IMG/VR virus record: IMGVR_UViG_3300005534_000017
Span: 1 to 54,758 of that record
Direction: 5' to 3' (one strand)
DNA length: 54,758 bases
DNA from: a virus
Under the pieces are notes generated by a model. The model was not told where the DNA came from, did not search any database, and was given only the letters and a program-made list of their open reading frames with translations. A program made the translations under genes and the position numbers. Below are positions 5,190 to 26,916 of this stretch, piece after piece; within the stretch, counting starts at the first letter, position 1, and every line of letters starts with the position of its first letter.

Positions 5190-5941
5190 ACTGTAACTCC
5201 CCATTTATTTTTAAGATAATTATTAATAAGTGTTAAATTGCTTCCACTCAAAGAAGTGTTAAAAAATAACAATTCAGATATTTTACCAGCCCAAAAAACA
5301 GCTGCTGGTAGCGCAAGTTGAATTGCGCCGATTGAAGAATGAGTGGCTGGGGTATTAAGGGTGGTAGAAGTACCGGTTAATGTTTGATTTACGCCAGCAA
5401 TTCTAGTTGCAAAAGCCGATGTTGCTTGTCCGGCTTGCGCATTTAAGTAAAATAAATATGGCGTAGAAGTGCTAAGAGAAGTTTGCCCGGTTTCTCCAAA
5501 ACCGTCATTTTCAAAATTTAAAAAATAATTTCCGCCGACGCCGCCATTAAATATTCCTAATGATAATCTTTGGCTTGTCAGATCAACGCCATGCGAAAAA
5601 AAGTATCCTTGAACTAAAGAAGAAATGGTAGTAACACAAAAGATGGTTCTAGCTCCACTTCCGCTTGGAAAATTATTGAAACCAGGATTCATAAAGCTAG
5701 TAGTTCCATTAAAATTTATAGCGGGTAATCCATTAACTTGATTTGTGTTAAATATTGGCTGATTAGCCCCTGTAGATTGTGTAGCATTATTTCCAGATGT
5801 AGATTTATCTTTCCATGTAGCTAAAGAAGACCCATTAGATGGCAAGACACCATTTGCTGATGGATCTGAAGCATCCAGCCAAAGAACAAGGCTTCCAATC
5901 TGACGAGGATTAAAATAATGATTGCTTGCAAAAAAACTCAT
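5186..5941 (-). CDS. LamG/concanavalin-like carbohydrate-binding protein (251 aa)
   Basis: Residues about 15-65 read IGSLVLWLDASDPS...ATWKDKSTSGNNATQ, followed by NGLPAINFNG, the usual opening of laminin-G/lectin-like jelly rolls found in adhesins. The rest is beta-rich to the C-terminal NNYLKNKWGVTV. The ATG at 5941 overlaps the stop of the upstream fibre gene (ATGA), preferred over the in-frame ATG at 5968. Probably a separate receptor-binding subunit on the tail fibres, attaching to host glycans; the substrate cannot be told. Confidence 0.72.
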   Translation of the reverse strand: MSFFASNHYFNPRQIGSLVLWLDASDPSANGVLPSNGSSLATWKDKSTSGNNATQSTGANQPIFNTNQVNGLPAINFNGTTSFMNPGFNNFPSGSGARTIFCVTTISSLVQGYFFSHGVDLTSQRLSLGIFNGGVGGNYFLNFENDGFGETGQTSLSTSTPYLFYLNAQAGQATSAFATRIAGVNQTLTGTSTTLNTPATHSSIGAIQLALPAAVFWAGKISELLFFNTSLSGSNLTLINNYLKNKWGVTV

Positions 5942-7248
5942 GCTGTTAAATTTCCTACTAATGACCAAGTATTTGTAGAAAGCTTCTTAAGCGTCGCGCC
6001 AGAATATTGAGCGCCCACTTTTAAGTTGCTGAACATGCTTTGAATCGTAACGCCGCCAGCCGCCGCAATAACAACTTGCCCTGCGCCTTGTTGAAATAAA
6101 TCAATTTCTGTATCAATTGGGAATGCAACACTTGCATTTGTTGGTACAGTAAATGTCTGAGCGGAAGCATTATTGCAAACCTGAAATGTATCAGCATCAG
6201 TCAAAGCAAATGTATAAGTAGTATTGGTATTGGAAATTGATGTTCTGTGCGGTAGTGCTCTAGTAGCAGCACTCATATTGGTTATATAGCTTGGTATTCC
6301 TGAAACAGAATAATATACGCTTCCCGAGGAAGGCGTTGCAGGCGTTGAACTTGAATCTGCTACCTTCATAGCCGATACGTTTGAAATGGTGCCTACATCT
6401 AAATTATAAGCAGGAGCGCTATTATTTAATCCAACAAAACAACCATTACCAATATTGGCAGCATTAGAAACGGTAACCGTAGTATTATATCCCAATGCCA
6501 TTGCATTACTTAAAGCATCAGAAGCATTAGAACTATATCCAATCAATGTTAGATTGGTAGCCGCACTCGTTGGAGTGGTACCACAAGTAGAACCAATAAT
6601 GGTACAACCACTTGCGGAAACTAAATTAATAACACTATTAGTTCCGACCATGGTATTATTTGGACAACTTCCAGCTAATTGATAGCCCGTGCTTGCACCG
6701 ATATAAGCGGAATTTGAACCAGAACCCACATTTTGACCGGCCTGCCAACCTATAAAAATACCACCATTATCATTAAATGAACTTCCTGTTTGCGAACCAA
6801 TTGCAACTGTTTTTGTGGTTGAACTAGAATTTAGAAGAGCTTGGAATCCAATCGCTACATTATCAGAAATTGCACCAGAACCATTTGATAAAGCTCCAAA
6901 ACCAATGGCCATATTTCTTATACAGCCTGTTGTGACGCCTGATAAACATAAATCGCCAATGGCAACATTATATTGAGAATTACCTGCTCCCGCATCATTT
7001 AAACTGAATAAGGCATCGTGACCGATTGCGATATTGCTAGATTGAATTGTATTATTTGCAAGGGCATTAGTTCCGATTACAACACAATATTGAGCCGTGG
7101 TTAATGCAGCACCCCCACCAAATGAATAAATATAATTATCGGTTCCAGTCGTTAATGTCGAAATTAACGAACCTTCAATTAAATTATTTTTAGTCGATGA
7201 AATCACAATCTCTGGATTTGCGGCATTATCTCTTAATGATATGGTCAT
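5938..7248 (-). CDS. Fibre protein with YadA-type head repeats (436 aa)
   Basis: Most of the chain is repeats of the form VAIGxxAL, NVAIGFQALLN, MALGYNTTV: the short left-handed beta-roll repeats of trimeric adhesin heads. After these comes a junction SSTPATPSSGSVYYSVSGIPSYI and a beta-rich C-terminal domain (about 320-436) resembling a fibre knob. It lacks the N-terminal ALEIQS...LLLPRMT segment of its neighbours. It starts 17 bp after the 857-aa paralogue and is coupled by ATGA to the lectin-like gene. Likely homotrimeric and receptor-facing. Confidence 0.78.
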   Translation of the reverse strand: MTISLRDNAANPEIVISSTKNNLIEGSLISTLTTGTDNYIYSFGGGAALTTAQYCVVIGTNALANNTIQSSNIAIGHDALFSLNDAGAGNSQYNVAIGDLCLSGVTTGCIRNMAIGFGALSNGSGAISDNVAIGFQALLNSSSTTKTVAIGSQTGSSFNDNGGIFIGWQAGQNVGSGSNSAYIGASTGYQLAGSCPNNTMVGTNSVINLVSASGCTIIGSTCGTTPTSAATNLTLIGYSSNASDALSNAMALGYNTTVTVSNAANIGNGCFVGLNNSAPAYNLDVGTISNVSAMKVADSSSTPATPSSGSVYYSVSGIPSYITNMSAATRALPHRTSISNTNTTYTFALTDADTFQVCNNASAQTFTVPTNASVAFPIDTEIDLFQQGAGQVVIAAAGGVTIQSMFSNLKVGAQYSGATLKKLSTNTWSLVGNLTA

Positions 7249-7265
7249 GTTTCAATTCCTTTTGA

Positions 7266-9839
7266 TTATCCAATCTGATATTGAACGGTTATTGTCCAAT
7301 TGTAAGTTAATGCGGTAACTCCTGTTGCATGCAATCTAACCGCTTGAGTTCCCGTGTTTGCGCTTACTGAAAAATCACCTGTTGAGGTCACATTCTTGTT
7401 GTATTCAGCTCCAACCATTGATATATTTCCAGCTGCTCTCATAAAGGATGCAACAATGTTACCGCCTGTTGAATCTACATGCGTGGTATCAACACCCGTA
7501 ATTGTTACCTGAACCGTTACACCTTTATTTACGGGAAGTACTAATAAATCCAATGCCAAATCAGTGGTTCCTGAGGTTTGAGCGGTATAGGTATAAGTCA
7601 AAAGTCCAGAGCTTGCAGTAGTTGGAACCGCAGTTCCAGTTGCTTGGCGGGTGGCTGATACATTAGATATATTTGCAATATCTAAGTTATAAGCGGGTGA
7701 TGGTTGATTAATGCCGACATTACAAGCGCTACCCAAATTGATAGCATTGCTGACATTAATATTGGTTTGATAACCAAAGGCACCAGAATTTGTTAATGAA
7801 TCTGTACCTGTTGTTTGAGACCCGATGTAAGTACAATTGGTAGCCGTTGTCAGAGCGGATGCGGCCAAATGTCCTAGAAACACGGATTCCGAAGAAGTAG
7901 TAATGGAATTGCCAGCACGGGATCCAATATATGTTCCATTAGAACCTGAATTTAATGAAAATCCAGCACTTTTTCCAACCCCAATGTTACTTACAGAGTT
8001 TCCAGGTGCTCCGTCGGCAAGCGTATTTAATGCTTGAGAACCGATGGCTATACATTCAATTTGAACTTTATTGCTTAAAAGTGCCTCTACACCGATGGCT
8101 ACGCAGTTTGTTGCCGTTGTTATATTGCGGCCTGCTTCAACACCCACTAATGTATTATTAGATGCCCCACTAGCTAAATTAAGACCAGCAAAATTACCTA
8201 CAACTGTACAGTTAGAAATACCTGTTAATGTCGTTTGAGTATTAAATCCGATAACTAAGTTATCGGTTCCAGCACTAATATGTGTATCATTAATAATGGT
8301 TGCGCTAGATGCAGCGGTTAAGAATCCTAAATTATTAACAGTAAAGTTTCCAACAGTATAAGAACCCGCTGTTACACCGGATGGTGATATTGGTATTGCA
8401 TGCGGAACACCATCTGTTCCCATATAGGTTGGAACACCACTATTAGAATACAATATATAGCCGCTTCCAGGTGTTGGAGGTAATGTGCTATTTGGGAAAT
8501 GAATAGCGGATATTCCACCAATCGTTCCCATATCTAATGAGTACGCAGGTGCTGAATTATTTAAACCTACATAACAACCATTGCCTAAATTTATTGCATT
8601 ACTAACGGTAATAGATGCGTTATAACCTAAAGCACCAGCATTGGATATTCCATTAGTAACCGTTGTTATCTTACCTATCGCAAATACGTTCGTAGCACTC
8701 GTGGTGGCTTGCATTGCGCCACTTCCGATAGCTATTGCACCACCGCCCGTTACAATTGAAGCAGCTGCACTAAATCCAACGGCAACGACATCATTTAATG
8801 TTGAAAGTGAAGAACCTGCCAACTCCCCGAGTAAAACGTTGAAATTACCCGATGTTAATGCAAAACCACTATCATGGCCTGCTGCCAAATTTTGTACACC
8901 CGTTGTTATGGCATGCAAACTATTAATACCAAGGCCAGTATTAAATTCAGCGCTGGTATAGGTTAGATTTCCGGCCCCTGTTCCGATAAAGAAATTGCCA
9001 TTCGCAAATCCATCATCAATAATGGTGGTTGGATGACCTGGTGAATAATAATCAACTCCGGCTAGAGCATCCGAAACAACACCTGTTCCAGTCGTAACTT
9101 TCATTAATCCGGTCGATAAACTTGATAAAACTTGTGCGTTAGGTAAGAAGGCACTAGCTGTTTGAATTAGATAGGTTCCATTTGCTGGGGCTCCTCCTGA
9201 ACCACCACCACTTGAAACAGTCGTAATTCGACCATATGCATCAACCGTGATATCTGCTTGAGTATAAGAACCCGGTGTCGCGCCGGTCGCGGCAAGATTT
9301 ATAGTTGGATTTCCTAAAGTACCGTCGGCATTACCAATTGATATATTAAGAACGTTTCCAGAAGCAAGAGAGCGTGTAAAATAATTGCTCCCCGCTTTTA
9401 CCATCAAACCAAAGGTCACTAAATCACTTAAGTTTTGTAAATTTGAGCTTAATGTTCCTGTAATAGTTCCTGAAGCAGTAATGGGACCACCGCTAAAGCT
9501 TACACCAGAGCCTGAGCTTACAACATTGACTGAAGTTACCGTACCAGCGCCTGTAAAAGCAGCCCAAGTACTCGTATTATCAAATAATTGGATTCCACCG
9601 GTTGTAGAATTAAATATTAACATTCCAGGCGTTGCATTTAACAAATTTCGAGCAGCTGTTGTCATTCTGGGTAACAATAAAGCGCCAAGAGATGATTGAA
9701 TTTCAAGAGCAGCAGAAACAGGTGCGCCATTGGCTTGTGATAGAAGTGTGGGTATTTCCGGTACTCCATTAACGCTTATGCTATCTGCAATCAAGACACC
9801 TGTTTGCATGCTGCTTGGATATTGTAAGTTTATAGCCAT
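7266..9839 (-). CDS. Long tail fibre with two YadA-type head blocks (857 aa)
   Basis: N-terminal anchor-like segment (residues 1-95) has MAINLQYPSSMQTGVL...PVSAALEIQSSLGALLLPRMT..GMLIFN, also present in the genes at 9870 and 14919. Two blocks of AIG/LG head repeats follow, each closed by a copy of SNAINLGxxCxVGxNxxxPAY(N/S)LD. The C-terminal domain is a beta-sandwich-like region. The internal duplication and the shared segments with four other genes show growth by module duplication. SD AAGGATGAAAAA precedes the start. Confidence 0.8.
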   Translation of the reverse strand: MAINLQYPSSMQTGVLIADSISVNGVPEIPTLLSQANGAPVSAALEIQSSLGALLLPRMTTAARNLLNATPGMLIFNSTTGGIQLFDNTSTWAAFTGAGTVTSVNVVSSGSGVSFSGGPITASGTITGTLSSNLQNLSDLVTFGLMVKAGSNYFTRSLASGNVLNISIGNADGTLGNPTINLAATGATPGSYTQADITVDAYGRITTVSSGGGSGGAPANGTYLIQTASAFLPNAQVLSSLSTGLMKVTTGTGVVSDALAGVDYYSPGHPTTIIDDGFANGNFFIGTGAGNLTYTSAEFNTGLGINSLHAITTGVQNLAAGHDSGFALTSGNFNVLLGELAGSSLSTLNDVVAVGFSAAASIVTGGGAIAIGSGAMQATTSATNVFAIGKITTVTNGISNAGALGYNASITVSNAINLGNGCYVGLNNSAPAYSLDMGTIGGISAIHFPNSTLPPTPGSGYILYSNSGVPTYMGTDGVPHAIPISPSGVTAGSYTVGNFTVNNLGFLTAASSATIINDTHISAGTDNLVIGFNTQTTLTGISNCTVVGNFAGLNLASGASNNTLVGVEAGRNITTATNCVAIGVEALLSNKVQIECIAIGSQALNTLADGAPGNSVSNIGVGKSAGFSLNSGSNGTYIGSRAGNSITTSSESVFLGHLAASALTTATNCTYIGSQTTGTDSLTNSGAFGYQTNINVSNAINLGSACNVGINQPSPAYNLDIANISNVSATRQATGTAVPTTASSGLLTYTYTAQTSGTTDLALDLLVLPVNKGVTVQVTITGVDTTHVDSTGGNIVASFMRAAGNISMVGAEYNKNVTSTGDFSVSANTGTQAVRLHATGVTALTYNWTITVQYQIG

Positions 9840-9869
9840 TTTTTCATCCTTGAAATTTTGTTAAATCCT

Positions 9870-12254
9870 TTAAGCTGGGGCTAGAATAGTTGTTGTTCCA
9901 TTGCTTCCTATATAAAAAAGAGCACCACCTGATACAAATAAAAATCCACCACCCGATGCACCGCCAGATGGAGGCGAATTTGTAGTATTAGAAATAAATA
10001 TATTGGCATTTGCAGATGTTCCAACATTTGCAATTTGTAGAGCATTACTAGGAGCCGATACACCGATACCAACATTTGCTCCACTTCCTAAAACTAAACA
10101 ATTGCTGGAAGTAACGCTTGCGTTATAACCTATTGCGGTAGCATTCGTTATACCGTTTGAAATTGTTGTTGCATTACCTAATAATACTGAATTTGATACA
10201 CCTGTTGTGGCAGCTGTACCCGCTGCATAACCGACCCAAGTATTATTAGATGATGTATCTGTTAATGAGTTACCAACAACAGAACCTATAAATGTATTTG
10301 CGCTGCCTAGCGAACTAATCGCACAATTATTACCGATTAAGACATTGTTACTTTGGGTATTTAGTAAGGCCCCGGCTTGATATCCAAATAGGCAATTATC
10401 TGAGCCACTGGTAAGAGCGGCGCCAGCAACTACACCTACAATTGTATTGCTATTTCCTGTTGCTGATGTATTATAAGCACCAAATCCGATTGCAAAATTT
10501 CCCGTACCATTGTGACCATCTAAGATTCTTGTTGGTGAATTGAGTGAATAGTAATCAGTTCCTGCAACAGCAATTGATAAAACACCAGTGCCAGTAGTAT
10601 TTTTAACTAAACCAGTCGCTAAGCTTTGAAGTGCTTGAGCATTCGGTAATCCAACATTTGTTTGCTGAACAATATATGTAGCGTTACTTGGAGCTCCACC
10701 AGCTGATGTCCAGCTCATCACACCAGCAGTGGTTGAGGCTAAAACTTGACCATTAGATGATGGATAGGTTTGTGGCAATGTATAGGTAAAATTACCGGCT
10801 AATGAGGCACCCGGAATTATTGTGATAGAATTAGTATTACCAGAATTATAAAGTGATAATCCTAAATTCGATAATACACTTAAGTTATTCGACGATATAA
10901 CGCCACTTCCACCGCCGCCCGTTAACGTGATTGAACCCGCTGTAGTAATGCTTAAAGCACCTGCGCTTTCCGCAATCGATCCGTTGGTAATGGTCATATT
11001 ACCAATCGCAACACTGGTTAATCCGGTTAATGTTGTATTGAGCGCCACCGTTCCTGTATTAACAATAGGATTTGGGGTACAGGTAATATTTGCACCTTGC
11101 GAAATGCTTGTGACACTGCCTGTTCCAACGGATGCCCAAGACATATTTCCCGATCCGTCCGATGACAATACTTGGCCATTTGTTGGGGCTGTTAAAGGCC
11201 ACAAATAACTTAAATTGACTCCTTGAGTACCGGCAGCAAAGGTAGATGAAAAAGTATTCGCAGGATTAAAGAACTGTATTGGACTTCCGGATTTTAGCTG
11301 AACAGCGGTTGATGTTGATGTTCCTATTTGTATTTGTGTTGGGTTTAACGTTAACGCAGCAAGCGCAGTCACAGTTATACCGCTTGTGCTTGCGATTGTA
11401 CTTCCCGAAATTGTAAAATTACCAACAGATAATGACGTTAAGCCTGAAACGGATGCGCTTAAACCAATGGTGCCACTTGTGGTTATAGTTCCACCGGTTA
11501 AATTTGAGCCTGCGGTAATAGAAGTTACTGTTCCGCCCGTAGCAGAAGACCAGGACATATTACCCGATGTATCGCTTGATAAAACTTGTCCATTCGTTCC
11601 TGGATAGGCTGCTGGAAATACATAACTTGTACTACTGCCCGCAGAGTTATTGGCTCTAAACGAAATCGTAGCTACGCCCGCATTAGTTAATGTTAATGCG
11701 TTAGTAGAGCCTAAAACTAAATTGCCAGAAATATTAATATTTCCACCACCACCATTGGCAGTTAAATTAACATTAGATGATGTGCTAACGACGTTTAAAG
11801 CGGCTGAACCTGAAATCGTATTGGCGGTTGTGCTTATCGATATATTACCAATAACAGCGCTTGTTAAACCGGTTAAAACTGGATTTAGAGAAACAGAACC
11901 GGTCGTGACTATTGGATTTGGAGATAAAACAATATTACTACCTTGACTAATACTGCTTACGCCGCCACCGCCGCCTGAACCAATCGGAACCCAAGCGCCC
12001 CCTTGCCTAGAATAAGGAGAAGTATTCGTTATATTATATAAAACCATACCATCGACAACAGGAGAAAGCGCATTCATTTGCGTATTTGTCATTCTGGGCA
12101 GCAACAGTGCACCTAAAGTCGATTGAATTTCCAAAGCTGTTGCAACAGGAACTCCACCAGATAAGGTAATCGTAGGAGGCGTACCACCAGGTCCTGTGTC
12201 CCCAACAAGCATAGCGGTACTAAATGTAACTGGGTCTTGTAAATTTATTCCCAT
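9870..12254 (-). CDS. Long tail fibre with repeated beta modules (794 aa)
   Basis: It shares the N-terminal segment (MGINLQDP...TALEIQSTLGALLLPRMTN) with the gene at 7266. The middle holds repeated modules of the pattern LTGLTSxxIGNxxI followed by YPxxNGQVLSSxxSGNMSW (at least three copies), then a block of AIG-type head repeats near residues 580-720. The C-terminus is short and glycine-rich (SGGGFLFVSGG). The same YP..NGQVL..MSW module is found in the gene at 48498. Inferred to be a trimeric fibre. Confidence 0.78.
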   Translation of the reverse strand: MGINLQDPVTFSTAMLVGDTGPGGTPPTITLSGGVPVATALEIQSTLGALLLPRMTNTQMNALSPVVDGMVLYNITNTSPYSRQGGAWVPIGSGGGGGVSSISQGSNIVLSPNPIVTTGSVSLNPVLTGLTSAVIGNISISTTANTISGSAALNVVSTSSNVNLTANGGGGNINISGNLVLGSTNALTLTNAGVATISFRANNSAGSSTSYVFPAAYPGTNGQVLSSDTSGNMSWSSATGGTVTSITAGSNLTGGTITTSGTIGLSASVSGLTSLSVGNFTISGSTIASTSGITVTALAALTLNPTQIQIGTSTSTAVQLKSGSPIQFFNPANTFSSTFAAGTQGVNLSYLWPLTAPTNGQVLSSDGSGNMSWASVGTGSVTSISQGANITCTPNPIVNTGTVALNTTLTGLTSVAIGNMTITNGSIAESAGALSITTAGSITLTGGGGSGVISSNNLSVLSNLGLSLYNSGNTNSITIIPGASLAGNFTYTLPQTYPSSNGQVLASTTAGVMSWTSAGGAPSNATYIVQQTNVGLPNAQALQSLATGLVKNTTGTGVLSIAVAGTDYYSLNSPTRILDGHNGTGNFAIGFGAYNTSATGNSNTIVGVVAGAALTSGSDNCLFGYQAGALLNTQSNNVLIGNNCAISSLGSANTFIGSVVGNSLTDTSSNNTWVGYAAGTAATTGVSNSVLLGNATTISNGITNATAIGYNASVTSSNCLVLGSGANVGIGVSAPSNALQIANVGTSANANIFISNTTNSPPSGGASGGGFLFVSGGALFYIGSNGTTTILAPA

Positions 12255-19904: not shown

Positions 19905-20121
19905 TATCATCCCTCCCTGAATTAATGGTTTTGGACTCATAAAAATGTGAATAGCATTCCTTAAGAATATCGATAGATTCCTGATAGGCTCTTAATTTCC
20001 CAACAGAAAATCGATAATCTTCCATGCTATTAAGAGCGCCTGATACCATCGATTCCTTGACAGTATTTAAACGCTCTTGAATCAGTTTAAAGCAGGATTC
20101 TAAAAAATACTCTCCGAACAT
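19885..20121 (-). CDS. Small helical protein (78 aa)
   Basis: All-helical composition (LESCFKLIQERLNTVKESMVSGALNSMEDYRFSVGKLRAYQESIDILKECYSHFYES). Similar short proteins between portal and scaffold genes of phages are unnamed. It is joined to its upstream neighbour by a TAATG overlap and overlaps the GroES-like gene by 20 bp. Confidence 0.7.
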   Translation of the reverse strand: MFGEYFLESCFKLIQERLNTVKESMVSGALNSMEDYRFSVGKLRAYQESIDILKECYSHFYESKTINSGRDDNGDEQF

Positions 20122-20570
20122 TAAACTCTTTGAGCACCTTTCATCGTCGCCACGCCTTTTCTAACTTTAGCAGCGCCTCCCAAAGCCATCATTTTGCGTT
20201 TCTTCAATTCTTTATGAAGATACGCTTCATGCATTAGCTCTTTACTTAGGGCTTTTTTTTTATGACCTTTGTGATGGCCTCCATGCATCATTTCATGCAT
20301 ATGCTCTTTACCATGGTGACCATCATGCATATGGTGTTCAGCATGGTGCTTTTTATGAGCATGATGCTCAGAATGATGTTTCTTATGACCATCTTTTGAT
20401 TTATGAGCATGACCGCCTTTTTTCATATAAGTACCGGTTGAAGCATCATAAGGAACTTTCTTTGCTTTTACGGAATGATTTGATTTAGGCAATTTAGCGC
20501 CTTGTAACGATTTTTTATCGTTAACACGTTTTGTTCCAACCATCATGGATTCTGATTCATATTTTGTCAT
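20121..20570 (-). CDS. Histidine/lysine-rich protein (149 aa)
   Basis: Starts at 20570, where GAGGA lies 8 nt upstream. The middle (about residues 48-110) is dominated by His and Lys (HKKHHSEHHAHKKHHAEHHM), so it may bind metal ions or nucleic acid. The stretch SVKAKKVPYDASTGTYMKKGG is nearly the same as one in the preceding gene's C-terminus, so these two are partial paralogues. Low-complexity His runs are unusual for a phage capsid cluster. Confidence 0.7.
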   Translation of the reverse strand: MTKYESESMMVGTKRVNDKKSLQGAKLPKSNHSVKAKKVPYDASTGTYMKKGGHAHKSKDGHKKHHSEHHAHKKHHAEHHMHDGHHGKEHMHEMMHGGHHKGHKKKALSKELMHEAYLHKELKKRKMMALGGAAKVRKGVATMKGAQRV

Positions 20571-20574
20571 TACA

Positions 20575-21075
20575 CTATCCTCTGTGTTTATGTACTTTCC
20601 CGCCCTTGCGCATATATTGACCTTGTGAGGCATCATATGGCAAAGATTGTTTCGCCTTAACTCTGCCGTCCTTTTTAGACTTCTTACCACCGGACAACTT
20701 AAGTGATTTCTTTTTCATCCCTATCATAGGATGAGAACCTGGGACGATAACTCGCATGGATTCTTTTACCATTCCACCTTTTTTCATTTTCTTTCTTGGA
20801 AAGTATCCATCATGTCGATTATCATTTAAAAATTGTTTAGTTTTTTTCTCTTTAATAGGTTGTGGAATATGAAGCTCTGACATTCTGCCTTCTTTATTCC
20901 TAGGTACGGCATGGCCGCCTTTCTTAAATGTTCTTTTTTTTAAAAACTGGGGCGCATGGCTTGATGCGAAGTAGCCTTTAATTTTAATATCCGTATCGCC
21001 TTTTAATAATTTTTTAGCATCATCCCGCATACTGTCTTTACCGGCATAACCCGATTCATAATTACATTTTTTCAT
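20575..21075 (-). CDS. Lysine/glycine-rich KKGG-repeat protein (166 aa)
   Basis: A basic protein with repeated KKGG motifs (FKKGGHAVPRNK, KMKKGGMVKESM, YMRKGGKVHKHRG) and VKAKQSLPYDASQGQYMRKGG at its C-terminus, shared with the next gene. It overlaps the end of the portal gene. High charge with no globular core suggests DNA or capsid-lumen contact, but this is a guess. Confidence 0.7.
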   Translation of the reverse strand: MKKCNYESGYAGKDSMRDDAKKLLKGDTDIKIKGYFASSHAPQFLKKRTFKKGGHAVPRNKEGRMSELHIPQPIKEKKTKQFLNDNRHDGYFPRKKMKKGGMVKESMRVIVPGSHPMIGMKKKSLKLSGGKKSKKDGRVKAKQSLPYDASQGQYMRKGGKVHKHRG

Positions 21076-23598: not shown

Positions 23599-23910
23599 TT
23601 AAGCGGCAGCATGAAGGATTTTTGCCAAGGTTTTAATAGTTGGGTTTTTGTTTCTAAGAGTATTATAAATATTAATTCTTGGAATGTTGTTTTTCTTAGA
23701 AAATTCAACAACATTGACAGATTTTAAATAAATATCAATCACTTCTACAATGCCTTCTGGATCATTATTTAAGAGGCATTCAGCGATAGCATTGACGATA
23801 TTTTTAGGATTACGGATATAGGCAGAAGGATCTAAACGGCTAAACCGGATAGGTTTTTTTATATTCTTGATAGATTTTTTTTGATTTTTTGATATCTTTA
23901 CTTTGCCCAT
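23599..23910 (-). CDS. HigA-like antitoxin (103 aa)
   Basis: The C-terminal half reads NNDPEGIVEVIDIYLKSVNVVEFSKKNNIPRINIYNTLRNKNPTIKTLAKILHA, the pattern of the downstream-encoded antitoxin of HI1420/HigA-type pairs with a helix-turn-helix. It overlaps the toxin gene upstream by 71 bp. It would neutralise the toxin and bind the palindrome upstream of the pair. A compact TA pair inside a phage late operon is unusual. Confidence 0.72.
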   Translation of the reverse strand: MGKVKISKNQKKSIKNIKKPIRFSRLDPSAYIRNPKNIVNAIAECLLNNDPEGIVEVIDIYLKSVNVVEFSKKNNIPRINIYNTLRNKNPTIKTLAKILHAAA

Positions 23911-24148
23911 TTTTATTTCCTCCTAATAATATTAAAATATTAAATTCTTTTAAATAGGAATAATATACACGATTCCCATTCTCCCATTTCAATTCCCAAA
24001 TCTCATCTACTAGATGCTTATAAACACCAAAGTGACCATATTTTTCTATCTTCCTTAACCTTTCGTAGATTTGTAATCTCGATTTTTCAGAAAGAGATGA
24101 AATCCAAGACTCAAATAGGTCGCTCTGTATTATTTCATATTCCCTCAT
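23840..24148 (-). CDS. RelE/HigB-like toxin (102 aa)
   Basis: It matches phage-derived Gp49/HigB-like toxins: FESWISSLSEKSRLQIYERLRKIEKYGHFGVYKHLVDEIWELKWENGNRVYYSYL, then ILILLGGNKNGQSKDIKKSKKI. These toxins are ribosome-dependent mRNA endonucleases. Toxin-first order and an overlapping antitoxin match the higBA layout. It sits 28 bp after the terminase C-half stop, with its own candidate operator. Confidence 0.78.
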   Translation of the reverse strand: MREYEIIQSDLFESWISSLSEKSRLQIYERLRKIEKYGHFGVYKHLVDEIWELKWENGNRVYYSYLKEFNILILLGGNKNGQSKDIKKSKKIYQEYKKTYPV

Positions 24149-24149
24149 T

Positions 24150-24190
24150 AGGATAATGTATCATATTAAATACGTATTAGTAAATCTTTT
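24150..24190 (-). promoter_or_regulatory. Candidate operator/promoter of the toxin-antitoxin pair
   Basis: A perfect palindrome AATACGTATT lies at 24169-24178, overlapping the terminase C-half stop. On the minus strand TTTACT, 18 bp, TACATT could be a promoter around it. TA pairs are commonly autoregulated at such palindromes. Confidence 0.45.
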
Positions 24191-25370
24191 TATTCCACCG
24201 TTTAGAAGTATCCTGTTCCTGGTCATCGTCAGGATTCCTAAGCCATCTAGCCGTTTGCAGCCTTAATAGAACCTGTACCATTGAATCGACGTAATCTCTC
24301 TCACCAGGGAAGCTTACACAGCTTTCCACGAACTCATCCGCTGTCTTTCTAAGGGCATTGAACAAAGGGGGCTTAGCAGCCACCCAGACGCGCCCAGACT
24401 CCAACAAATGGCTAATGACTTGAACTCGAGCGGTCTTATCACCCCATTTATCTGGATTAAAGCCAAATGCCGTAATACCAGCGGCAGAAAAGTCCTGTAA
24501 CAATGAAATGCCAGAGGATTTAGATTCAACCAATACATAATCAGGTTGATGATTACCATCGGGTTCTATTTCGGTATTTCCATCGTCTCGGTAATCGATA
24601 AATAGGCGCTTAGCCATAGCTCTTAATTCTGGATAACCGACCTGACCTCTATAGGCTGATAATAGAATTAAATTTAAATGGTCCCTTTCATCATAGAATA
24701 GCCCCCAGGTTGTACAGGCTGAATAACAGGCTGATTTCTTATCTGATAGTGCCGTATCCCAGGATTGGATAACTTGTATGGTTTCTGGGGGTGATGGTTC
24801 TTTCCACCATTGAAACCATTCTCTTCTAATCATATCCCCATCGGCAGCTCGAGGCCTTTGTTGCAACTGACCGGCAATACGTGTCTCAGTCTTTAAATTC
24901 TTTTTTAAACGTTCTAAACCTTTTTCAGTATAATAAGAAGGACAGAGTATCTCCCCTCGCTTGGTTCTTGGATCTTGCCAAATCTTGCCATTACTCGAAG
25001 GCAAGATAATTGTCTTAGCTCTTCTTTCCGGTTCAAATTCCATGGGAAGAATGACTTTTATCCAATCACCATCAAAATCATGTTTCATTATATGATTGGA
25101 TATATCATCTTCATGTAATCTTTGTTGAACAACTACCATGCAATCGTTATTAATATTATTTAAACGAGTAGACCAAACATTATCCCACCAGTCTATAGCA
25201 TTGCAACGATCTACATCAGATTCAATGTCTTTAGCATTATTAGGATCATCACAATTATGAACCAAAACTCCATTTGCAAAGTAATTCCTATTATCTTTAA
25301 CCTTTATGTTATAAACATAATCGGGTATTGTTTCTACTTTTCTAATAGCTTTGACAATTTTTCTTTCCAT
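24177..25370 (-). CDS. terL-C: Terminase large subunit, C-terminal half with split-intein IntC
   Basis: The start at 25370 is chosen because GGAG lies 11 nt upstream and gives a 39-residue IntC (MERKIVKAIRKVETIPD...NYFANGVLVHN) of the usual split-intein size; an in-frame ATG at 25412 is less likely. IntC ends HN and the next residue is Cys (+1). The C-extein then reads CDDPNNAKD, the continuation of the Walker B motif, followed by QRLHEDD, LQQRPRA and the nuclease motifs IQSWDTA, VLVESKSSG and RDYVDSMVQVLL. Joining it to the N half gives a 526-aa terminase. Its 5' end overlaps the HNH gene by 37 bp. Confidence 0.9.
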   Translation of the reverse strand: MERKIVKAIRKVETIPDYVYNIKVKDNRNYFANGVLVHNCDDPNNAKDIESDVDRCNAIDWWDNVWSTRLNNINNDCMVVVQQRLHEDDISNHIMKHDFDGDWIKVILPMEFEPERRAKTIILPSSNGKIWQDPRTKRGEILCPSYYTEKGLERLKKNLKTETRIAGQLQQRPRAADGDMIRREWFQWWKEPSPPETIQVIQSWDTALSDKKSACYSACTTWGLFYDERDHLNLILLSAYRGQVGYPELRAMAKRLFIDYRDDGNTEIEPDGNHQPDYVLVESKSSGISLLQDFSAAGITAFGFNPDKWGDKTARVQVISHLLESGRVWVAAKPPLFNALRKTADEFVESCVSFPGERDYVDSMVQVLLRLQTARWLRNPDDDQEQDTSKRWNKKIY

Positions 25371-26412
25371 AATAATCTTTGCTCCATGCGTCCATGCATT
25401 TTTCCATGACAATACTTACAAAGGGTTATTAAATTATCCTCATTTAAATTTTCTTTATCATAATCAATATGATGAACACATAATAATTTTTTATGCTCCT
25501 CTTCTGTCATACTACAAATCATACATTTATAACCATCTCTATCCCTAATAATCGATTTAAATCTTTTATTCCAGTCAGGAGGATAGGGTCCATCACCATC
25601 CCCATGCATAAACCTTCCATTATTTTTGCCTCTTATATATTTTGAATGACCTAAATCTGCACATTCTCTTGAACAAAAATTTCTTTTTCCAACCTTTCTT
25701 TTAGTTATTCTAATTTCTTTTTTACAATTATGGCAATTATCCAACAAATTTTCATATAAAAAATGATTTTCGCCTTTTAATAATTTATCTCTACAAGACA
25801 AAGAACAGAATCGTTGATTTAATCTACCGGTTTTTTTTATAACAAATTCAGAATTACATACTATGCAATTTTTAGATCTCTTTACACCTTTCCAACTCGG
25901 GTTATTTGAACCAATTTGAAATTTATCAAAGCATGCTCTAGTACAAAAATGTCTTTTAGTTTTTTTAAACTCACCCTTTTTTAGAATGACTTTTTTATTA
26001 CAATTAAAACAATTAAAAGTCCTACATTGTTCCCCCCATTTTAATAAACACTCTTTTCCGCAAAACTTCCTTTTTATTGATGGTTTTGCTTTATATTCTT
26101 TTTTACAGAAAAAACAAATTTTAATCATAATGTTATAACCACATCTCCAACTTGAATGTCTTTAGCCTGAACATAGCCTTTCCCTTCAATATAAACAGGG
26201 TGCTCTTCAGTACAATAAATTGAACCATCTCCATAATCTATTTCTATAAGTTCTTTACCTTTATTTTTTTCATATTGTAGTATGTGTTTATATTCTAACT
26301 TATTAGTATTATGATTAAAGCTAAGCACATCGCATTTAATCTCATTTTCTACAATTTCGCCTATGTATAAATCTCCTAGATTTGTATTAATAATAGTATC
26401 ATATGGAACGCA
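25254..26412 (-). other. Split intein insertion in the terminase gene (IntN - endonuclease gene - IntC)
   Basis: IntN is residues 169-263 of the upstream gene (26412-26128), with Cys1, block B T236xxH239 and a block-ending GDVV. IntC is 39 residues (25370-25254) with block F (VKDNRNYFANG) and block G (VLVHN), followed by Cys+1. The three frames differ (offsets of +2 each), each gene has its own start, so one intein polyprotein cannot be made. Trans-splicing would join ...GGSILL to CDDPNNAK, restoring Walker B. All catalytic residues expected for a class 1 intein are present. Confidence 0.88.
25334..26128 (-). CDS. HNH homing endonuclease between the intein halves, with four zinc-knuckle repeats (264 aa)
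   Basis: Four tandem modules of CxxC...CxxxC type (residues about 5-27, 39-65, 88-112, 131-155) precede an HNH core CMICSMTEEEHKKLLCVHHIDYDKEN...LCKYCHGKMH near 202-245, with HH/N/H and the paired Cys of a zinc-bound HNH. The modules presumably bind DNA. The ATG overlaps the IntN stop (ATGA), coupling translation. It would cut unoccupied terminase genes and drive homing of the whole insertion. Confidence 0.88.
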   Translation of the reverse strand: MIKICFFCKKEYKAKPSIKRKFCGKECLLKWGEQCRTFNCFNCNKKVILKKGEFKKTKRHFCTRACFDKFQIGSNNPSWKGVKRSKNCIVCNSEFVIKKTGRLNQRFCSLSCRDKLLKGENHFLYENLLDNCHNCKKEIRITKRKVGKRNFCSRECADLGHSKYIRGKNNGRFMHGDGDGPYPPDWNKRFKSIIRDRDGYKCMICSMTEEEHKKLLCVHHIDYDKENLNEDNLITLCKYCHGKMHGRMEQRLLWKEKLSKLLEK

Positions 26413-26916
26413 GAGAAGTATACTACCACCGTCTCCGGTTGCTGATCCACCTGTACTGGTTGCTATCCTGTATCCTTGCTTTGAATTATCGAATCTATGC
26501 TTAGTATTTTGGTCCTTATCCAACGAAAAGATATGCCCCCATCTTTCCTGATACCATTTACTTTCGATTAACCTGCGGCAAAATCTAGAGTCTCTATTCG
26601 ATATAGCGGCTGAATAGGAAGAGCACATAAACTGTTCATTCGGGTTATGTATCCAGGTCCAAGCAGGCCACATGACCGATATCAAGGTAGACTTTAAATG
26701 CCTAGGCGGCATATTGACCAATAGATTCTTAATTTGACGCTTACTGACGGCTTCTAGATGTTCACAAATGGCCTGTAGATACCATCCATCATAGAAAGGC
26801 TTATTACCCGATACAATAGGCCAAGCCTGTTTAGCAAATTCATAGAAGCTATCCTCAGCCGCATAGACTGCCGCCAGGTAATCAATCGCCTGTTGTTCTA
26901 TAGATAAAGCAGCCAT
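26125..26916 (-). CDS. terL-N: Terminase large subunit, N-terminal half with split-intein IntN
   Basis: Residues 1-168 are the N-extein: a deviant Walker A, NMPPRHLKST (68-77), adenine-binding-like upstream residues, and IATSTGGSATGDGGSILL ending at the hydrophobic strand of Walker B. Residue 169 is Cys1 of the intein (codon 26412-26410). IntN has 95 residues and includes CTEEHPVY (block B). The protein cannot act as an ATPase alone because Walker B is missing. It starts 9 bp after the gene at 26926. Confidence 0.9.
   Translation of the reverse strand: MAALSIEQQAIDYLAAVYAAEDSFYEFAKQAWPIVSGNKPFYDGWYLQAICEHLEAVSKRQIKNLLVNMPPRHLKSTLISVMWPAWTWIHNPNEQFMCSSYSAAISNRDSRFCRRLIESKWYQERWGHIFSLDKDQNTKHRFDNSKQGYRIATSTGGSATGDGGSILLCVPYDTIINTNLGDLYIGEIVENEIKCDVLSFNHNTNKLEYKHILQYEKNKGKELIEIDYGDGSIYCTEEHPVYIEGKGYVQAKDIQVGDVVITL

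What the first reader, a model, noticed from the sequence alone, without database searches (positions are those of the whole stretch)
24177..26916. Terminase large subunit split by a split intein, cut inside Walker B
The terminase is encoded as two separate genes. The N half ends in a 95-aa IntN (Cys1, TxxH block B, GDVV), the C half begins with a 39-aa IntC (block F, HN end, Cys+1). Joined exteins read GGSILL-CDDP, restoring Walker B, so neither half is an active ATPase without trans-splicing. Split inteins in fractured phage genes are known, and one atypically split TerL intein (AceL-TerL) has been described, but the classical split here (95/39) with an intact endonuclease gene between the halves is notable and could be new.
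Basis: partly seen in the sequence, partly recalled or inferred. Interest (0 to 1): 0.94.

Follow-up and report, generated by a model that had tools for sequence, protein, structure and literature searches.

The report
Split-intein phage terminase with hidden-endonuclease ancestry
This phage makes its DNA-packaging motor protein as two separate genes that a split intein should stitch back together, and its relatives show a likely route to this: a DNA-cutting 'homing' gene sits out of frame inside the intein, and in AT-rich phages the host gene then breaks in two.

Summary
TerL is encoded as N-extein (168 aa)-IntN (95 aa), then a separate HNH endonuclease gene, then IntC (39 aa)-C-extein (358 aa). 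Every class-1 splicing residue is present. The exteins abut without a gap in the TerL profile (PHROG_38 407|408), and relatives L002/L003 carry the empty site. Trans-splicing to a 526-aa, 60.8-kDa TerL is the best reading.

TerL split inteins and 'fractured genes' are already known. The surprise lies in the relatives. In 27 dereplicated loci the same HNH family sits +1 out of frame inside a contiguous TerL-intein ORF, which has 0 stops across the overlaps where synonymous shuffling expects 281. In 7 loci, the window included, the halves are separate and stop counts are near neutral. Split loci are AT-rich; their IntC ATG lies at one homologous spot inside the HNH 3' end (7/7). The split HNHs form a derived clade (82/87) among nested ones. 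L008, against intein-free L093, shows a co-conversion edge about 48 nt from the insertion.

So a plausible route to a split intein can be read from sequence. No splicing or cleavage was tested. One directly relevant preprint could not be read.

The parts
26413..26916 (-). TerL N-extein (168 aa), Walker A region NMPPRHLKST, ends GGSILL
   Evidence: PHROG_38 profile 262-407; 55-58% identical to intein-free L002/L003 with third-position-rich changes
26128..26412 (-). IntN, 95 aa: Cys1 (CVPYDT), block B CTEEH, ends GDVVITL; stop TGA at 26125-26127
   Evidence: NCBIfam intein_Nterm above cut-off; own IntN HMM E=3e-40
26125..26128 (-). ATGA: HNH start codon overlaps IntN stop codon (possible translational coupling)
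   Evidence: sequence
25334..26128 (-). HNH homing-endonuclease gene (264 aa): four Cys zinc-finger-like modules plus an HNH motif (VHHID...N...CHGKMH), in a frame different from both intein halves
   Evidence: PF01844 above gathering cut-off; PHROG_1271 E=3e-29; AlphaFold2 mean pLDDT 82.7; invariant Cys/His columns over 18 relatives
25382..25385 (-). GGAG, Shine-Dalgarno-like, 11 nt before the IntC ATG; encoded by HNH codons
   Evidence: sequence; purine-rich segments at the equivalent place in the other split loci
25334..25370 (-). 37-nt overlap of the HNH 3' end with the start of the IntC gene; the ATG is spelled across HNH codons ..A TGG
   Evidence: ATG at the homologous place in 7/7 HNH-bearing split loci
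25254..25370 (-). IntC, 39 aa (MERKIV...NYFANGVLVHN)
   Evidence: NCBIfam intein_Cterm above cut-off; own IntC HMM E=5e-20
24177..25253 (-). TerL C-extein (358 aa), Cys+1, DDP of Walker B, RNase H-like nuclease domain
   Evidence: PF17289 E=9e-8; PHROG_38 profile 408-707

Best explanation
The locus is a naturally split class-1 intein in TerL, carried with its homing endonuclease gene. N-half-IntN and IntC-C-half are translated separately, associate, and trans-splice at SILL|CDDP to give one active TerL. This is inferred from anatomy. The HNH is made from its own start and would cut intein-free terL alleles, so that repair copies the whole cassette; this is inferred, and supported by a co-conversion footprint in L008. 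The split most likely arose from a contiguous TerL intein carrying the HNH gene nested in the +1 frame. There, the intein frame had to stay open through the HNH gene. In an AT-rich lineage that open frame was lost. An NTG already formed by a conserved HNH Trp codon just before IntC became the start of the C half, and stop codons then accumulated freely.
For: Motifs and seamless extein join. Empty site in relatives. In 27 nested loci the intein frame has 0 stops against 281 expected by synonymous shuffling. In 7 split loci counts are at or near expectation: WIN 17 vs 16.5, L012 37 vs 42.2 (P 0.036), L097 31 vs 33.7, L113 39 vs 40.3, L157 37 vs 37.5. 6/7 split loci keep the nested phase, with N and C in one frame and HNH at +1. 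Split linker GC is 0.27-0.46 against 0.39-0.70 for nested (Mann-Whitney P=0.0006; 0.0003 for nested loci at the same CDDP site, not corrected for kinship). IntC ATG at one homologous codon in 7/7; in six nested kin the same codon is GTG x4, TTG, ATG. HNH tree: splits form one clade (82/87) inside a clade whose other intein members are nested. L008 vs L093: 57-60% identity in the first 60 nt after the insertion, about 93-100% beyond. AlphaFold2 of nested intein L135: IntN and IntC blocks mostly 77-91 pLDDT, out-of-frame linker mostly under 50; best PDB matches are inteins.
Against: No splicing or cleavage was measured. The intein tree mixes mini-inteins among the splits (L113 beside L110/L116/L117), so direct HNH invasion of a mini-intein, or re-fusion, is possible. 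The window has lost the nested phase (HNH +2, C half +1). A single HNH-clade origin has only moderate support. Five other split loci carry different inserts, so at least some splits did not come from this HNH nest.
Confidence: 0.82

Rival explanations
1. The split arose directly: an HNH gene invaded a contiguous mini-intein and broke it at once. The nested contiguous forms are a separate outcome of similar invasions.
For: Mini-inteins stand next to split loci in the intein tree. Splits with other inserts exist: L120 (opposite-strand ORF), L128/L131/L134/L137 (ORFs GIY-YIG-like by eye only). A published review states that endonuclease invasion is thought to have fragmented contiguous inteins (PMC11766414).
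Against: Split HNHs are one clade within nested HNHs. 6/7 keep the exact nested phase. Mini-intein L152 is a relic: 97-99.7% identical to nested L154 with HNH ends still present, so minis can be decay products.
Confidence: 0.25
2. The terL gene is broken (pseudogene or assembly error) and no splicing occurs.
For: Uncultivated contig from one assembly.
Against: Both exteins and all splicing motifs are conserved, and extein changes concentrate at third codon positions. Seven dereplicated loci share the layout with IntC ATGs at one place. At least 16 stops in either intein frame cannot be one sequencing error. No other TerL match in the record.
Confidence: 0.03
3. The halves are joined during translation by frameshifting or stop readthrough, or by RNA splicing of the HNH region.
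For: Contiguous relatives exist; HNH genes often live in group I introns.
Against: 17 stops in the N frame and 43 in the C frame lie in between. No Rfam match at E<=1 in 23.5-27.5 kb. The intein termini are protein-splicing motifs.
Confidence: 0.02

Closest known systems
Fractured genes with split inteins and a free-standing endonuclease (Dassa et al. 2009, NAR 37:2560; known here through PMC11766414 and own knowledge)
   Same: Host gene in two pieces, split intein at the break, endonuclease gene between the pieces
   Different: Here the endonuclease is a zinc-finger HNH, not the VSR-like family of that paper (own knowledge). Contiguous relatives with the same endonuclease out of frame are seen.
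AceL-TerL and GOS-TerL split inteins (PMC11766414)
   Same: Natural split inteins in TerL
   Different: Those are atypically split with 25- and 37-aa IntN. Here the split is canonical, 95/39, at the endonuclease insertion site.
Contiguous TerL inteins of mycobacteriophages, site TerL1-e in Walker B (PMC5050341)
   Same: Same protein and same motif invaded
   Different: Those are described as contiguous. Whether any hides an out-of-frame HNH was not reported in the passages read.
ShiLan hidden HNH insertion in a phage methylase (PMC11855218)
   Same: HNH gene out of frame in a host ORF that stays open
   Different: That insertion has no splicing domain. Here the HNH lies inside a recognisable intein, and a split descendant state is seen.

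Membership tests
Class-1 split intein | Cys1, block B TxxH, terminal HN, nucleophile +1, in two separately encoded parts | tested here: met
   CVPY..., CTEEH, VHN|C read in sequence; intein_Nterm and intein_Cterm above cut-off on separate ORFs
Class-1 split intein | Protein trans-splicing activity | not testable with these tools
   needs expression
Split TerL | Extein halves together make one complete TerL | tested here: met
   PHROG_38 407|408 join; gap-free alignment to L002/L003
Fractured-gene arrangement (Dassa 2009) | Split intein halves with a free-standing endonuclease gene between | tested here: met
   HNH 25334-26128 between the halves
Fractured-gene arrangement (Dassa 2009) | Endonuclease of the VSR-like family | tested here: not met
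   HNH by Pfam, PHROGs and motif; the arrangement matches, the endonuclease family does not
Atypical AceL-TerL type | Very short IntN (about 25-37 aa) | tested here: not met
   IntN is 95 aa
HNH homing endonuclease | Intact HNH motif and zinc modules | tested here: met
   PF01844 21.7 bits vs cut-off 21.4; invariant columns
HNH homing endonuclease | Cuts and invades intein-free terL | tested here: inconclusive
   co-conversion edge in L008 vs L093; cleavage not tested, and the N side of L008 is off the contig
ShiLan-like hidden HNH | HNH out of frame inside a continuous host ORF | tested here: not met
   not in the window (stops in between); met in 27 relatives

The most novel reading that the evidence does not exclude
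Inteins can carry their homing endonuclease as a separate gene overprinted in another frame of the same DNA, instead of as an in-frame domain. This is a widespread state in TerL (27 loci here, plus two contiguous inteins with antisense NUMOD/HNH-like ORFs seen by eye) and the direct evolutionary source of a class of split inteins, with AT-rich composition tipping the balance to fracture.
Probability: 0.65. Interest if true: 0.87.

Novelty: new variant of a known kind. Interest (0 to 1): 0.78.

Why it matters
How split inteins arise is a long-standing question. Here one protein site in phages shows the proposed stages side by side: empty site, mini-intein, contiguous intein with an out-of-frame HNH, split with HNH, split with decayed HNH, and halves separated by unrelated genes. 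Dual coding over 600-900 nt, kept stop-free in 27 loci, is a strong measurable signal that intein surveys which read only the host frame would miss. The set also supplies many candidate canonical split inteins for protein engineering.

Tried and rejected
A close-relative search with the window HNH alone found one locus; alignments were needed. RNA intron: no Rfam match. Other inteins in the window: none. Second TerL in the record: none found. Pfam did not identify the inserts of L120, L128, L131, L134 and L137, so 'GIY-YIG-like' and 'antisense HNH-like' are by eye only. The PDB fold search for the HNH gave no confident whole-protein match. Dassa 2009 and the preprint Gosselin 2025 (10.1101/2025.01.02.630785, 'non-canonical architecture' of actinophage inteins) are not held. 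The latter may already describe Clown-type inteins, which lowers my novelty claim. The intein tree alone does not fix the direction of change.

Full report
Observation. On the minus strand of this 54.8-kb virus record (IMG/VR) the TerL gene is in two pieces with an HNH gene between them. The N half is 168 aa of extein plus 95 aa of IntN; the C half, from the ATG at 25370, is 39 aa of IntC plus 358 aa of extein. Both intein parts pass the curated NCBIfam cut-offs. PHROG_38 TerL matches the two halves at adjacent profile positions, 407 and 408. Intein-free relatives L002 and L003 align through the junction. Walker A is on the N half and the Walker B acidic residues on the C half, so neither half should be an ATPase alone (inference).

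Relatives. I collected TerL loci from IMG/VR, public phages and genome contigs, and located IntN, IntC and HNH with HMMs in all forward frames. After dereplication, 53 inteins in the TerL Walker B motif fall into five states: 27 nested (contiguous ORF with HNH in the +1 frame), 12 mini-inteins, 7 split with HNH, 5 split with other inserts, 2 contiguous with other inserts. The nested group includes Gordonia phage Clown and Synechococcus phage S-EIVl, whose annotated terminase ORFs run through the HNH gene in another frame.

Dual coding. If HNH codons are shuffled among synonyms, the intein frame should contain 281 stops over the 27 nested loci; it contains none. Two very GC-rich loci carry no information (expected about 0). 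In the other loci about 3-17 stops are expected and none of 2000 shuffles per locus reached zero, except in Clown (P 0.03). The remaining alternative frame has 5-16 stops. In the seven split loci the stop count matches expectation (L012 slightly low, P 0.036), so the constraint is gone. In the overlap, amino-acid identity is higher in the HNH frame than in the intein frame and changes concentrate at HNH third positions: the HNH is the protein-coding constraint, while the linker need only stay open. In L069 and L087 the HNH is broken while the TerL frame stays open. AlphaFold2 of the nested L135 intein gives a confident splicing fold around a low-confidence linker.

From nested to split. HNHs of six split loci form one clade (82/87) inside a clade whose other intein-borne members are nested, and the second large clade is entirely nested. 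L012, L097, L113, L143, L157 and L008 keep N and C in the same frame with HNH at +1, as in nested loci; only the window has drifted. In all seven the IntC ATG is at the same place in the HNH 3' end, spelled by a TGG or TGC codon preceded by A; nested relatives have GTG, TTG or ATG there. Split loci are AT-rich, which makes an open second frame hard to keep (not corrected for kinship). The intein tree is less clear, with mini-inteins among the splits, so the route is well supported but not proven.

Mobility and decay. L008, a split intein with an internally deleted HNH, is followed by 3.9 kb that is 98.6% identical to intein-free L093, but the first 60 nt after the insertion are only 57-60% identical: a co-conversion footprint of recent arrival. 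L152 is a mini-intein that still holds both ends of an HNH seen whole in L154. In two further records (G001, G002) the TerL halves are not adjacent: about 7 kb and 3.8 kb apart if the genomes are circular, further if not.

Novelty. TerL split inteins, fractured genes with endonucleases between halves, Walker B TerL inteins, and out-of-frame HNH insertions without inteins are each known (PMC11766414, PMC5050341, PMC11855218). The combination, an intein with an overprinted endonuclease gene and its split descendants, was not found in the papers I could search. One preprint on non-canonical actinophage inteins was not readable and may overlap. Splicing, endonuclease activity and expression of the overlapped frame remain untested.

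Noticed in passing
window 23599-24148 (-): Gp49/HigB-like toxin and HI1420-like antitoxin genes sit between the TerL C half and the portal gene.
   Followed up: no
L011 (Escherichia phage BUCT618) 2939-3925 and L148 3161-4153: Contiguous TerL inteins whose linker carries, on the opposite strand, a long open frame resembling NUMOD/HNH homing endonucleases by eye.
   Followed up: partly
L120 3303-3965 (-); L128, L131, L134, L137 linkers: Other split TerL inteins at the same CDDP site with different inserted ORFs (opposite-strand, or GIY-YIG-like by eye); Pfam does not name them.
   Followed up: partly
G001 (record of L107) and G002 (record of L095): Intein-bearing TerL halves that are not neighbours, with several unrelated small genes between them.
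   Followed up: partly
L157 3529-4887: A split TerL intein with HNH on a contig of the cyanobacterium Brasilonema sp., probably a prophage or phage contig.
   Followed up: no
L004 4687-5745: A relative's TerL carries a contiguous intein at Walker A, not Walker B.
   Followed up: no
window 5938-12254 (-): Three neighbouring tail-fibre-like proteins share repeated motifs.
   Followed up: no
window 20121-21075 (-): Small Lys/Gly/His-rich proteins (KKGG and HKKHH repeats) next to the portal gene; similar Gly-rich proteins lie downstream of the portal in L093 and L108.
   Followed up: no
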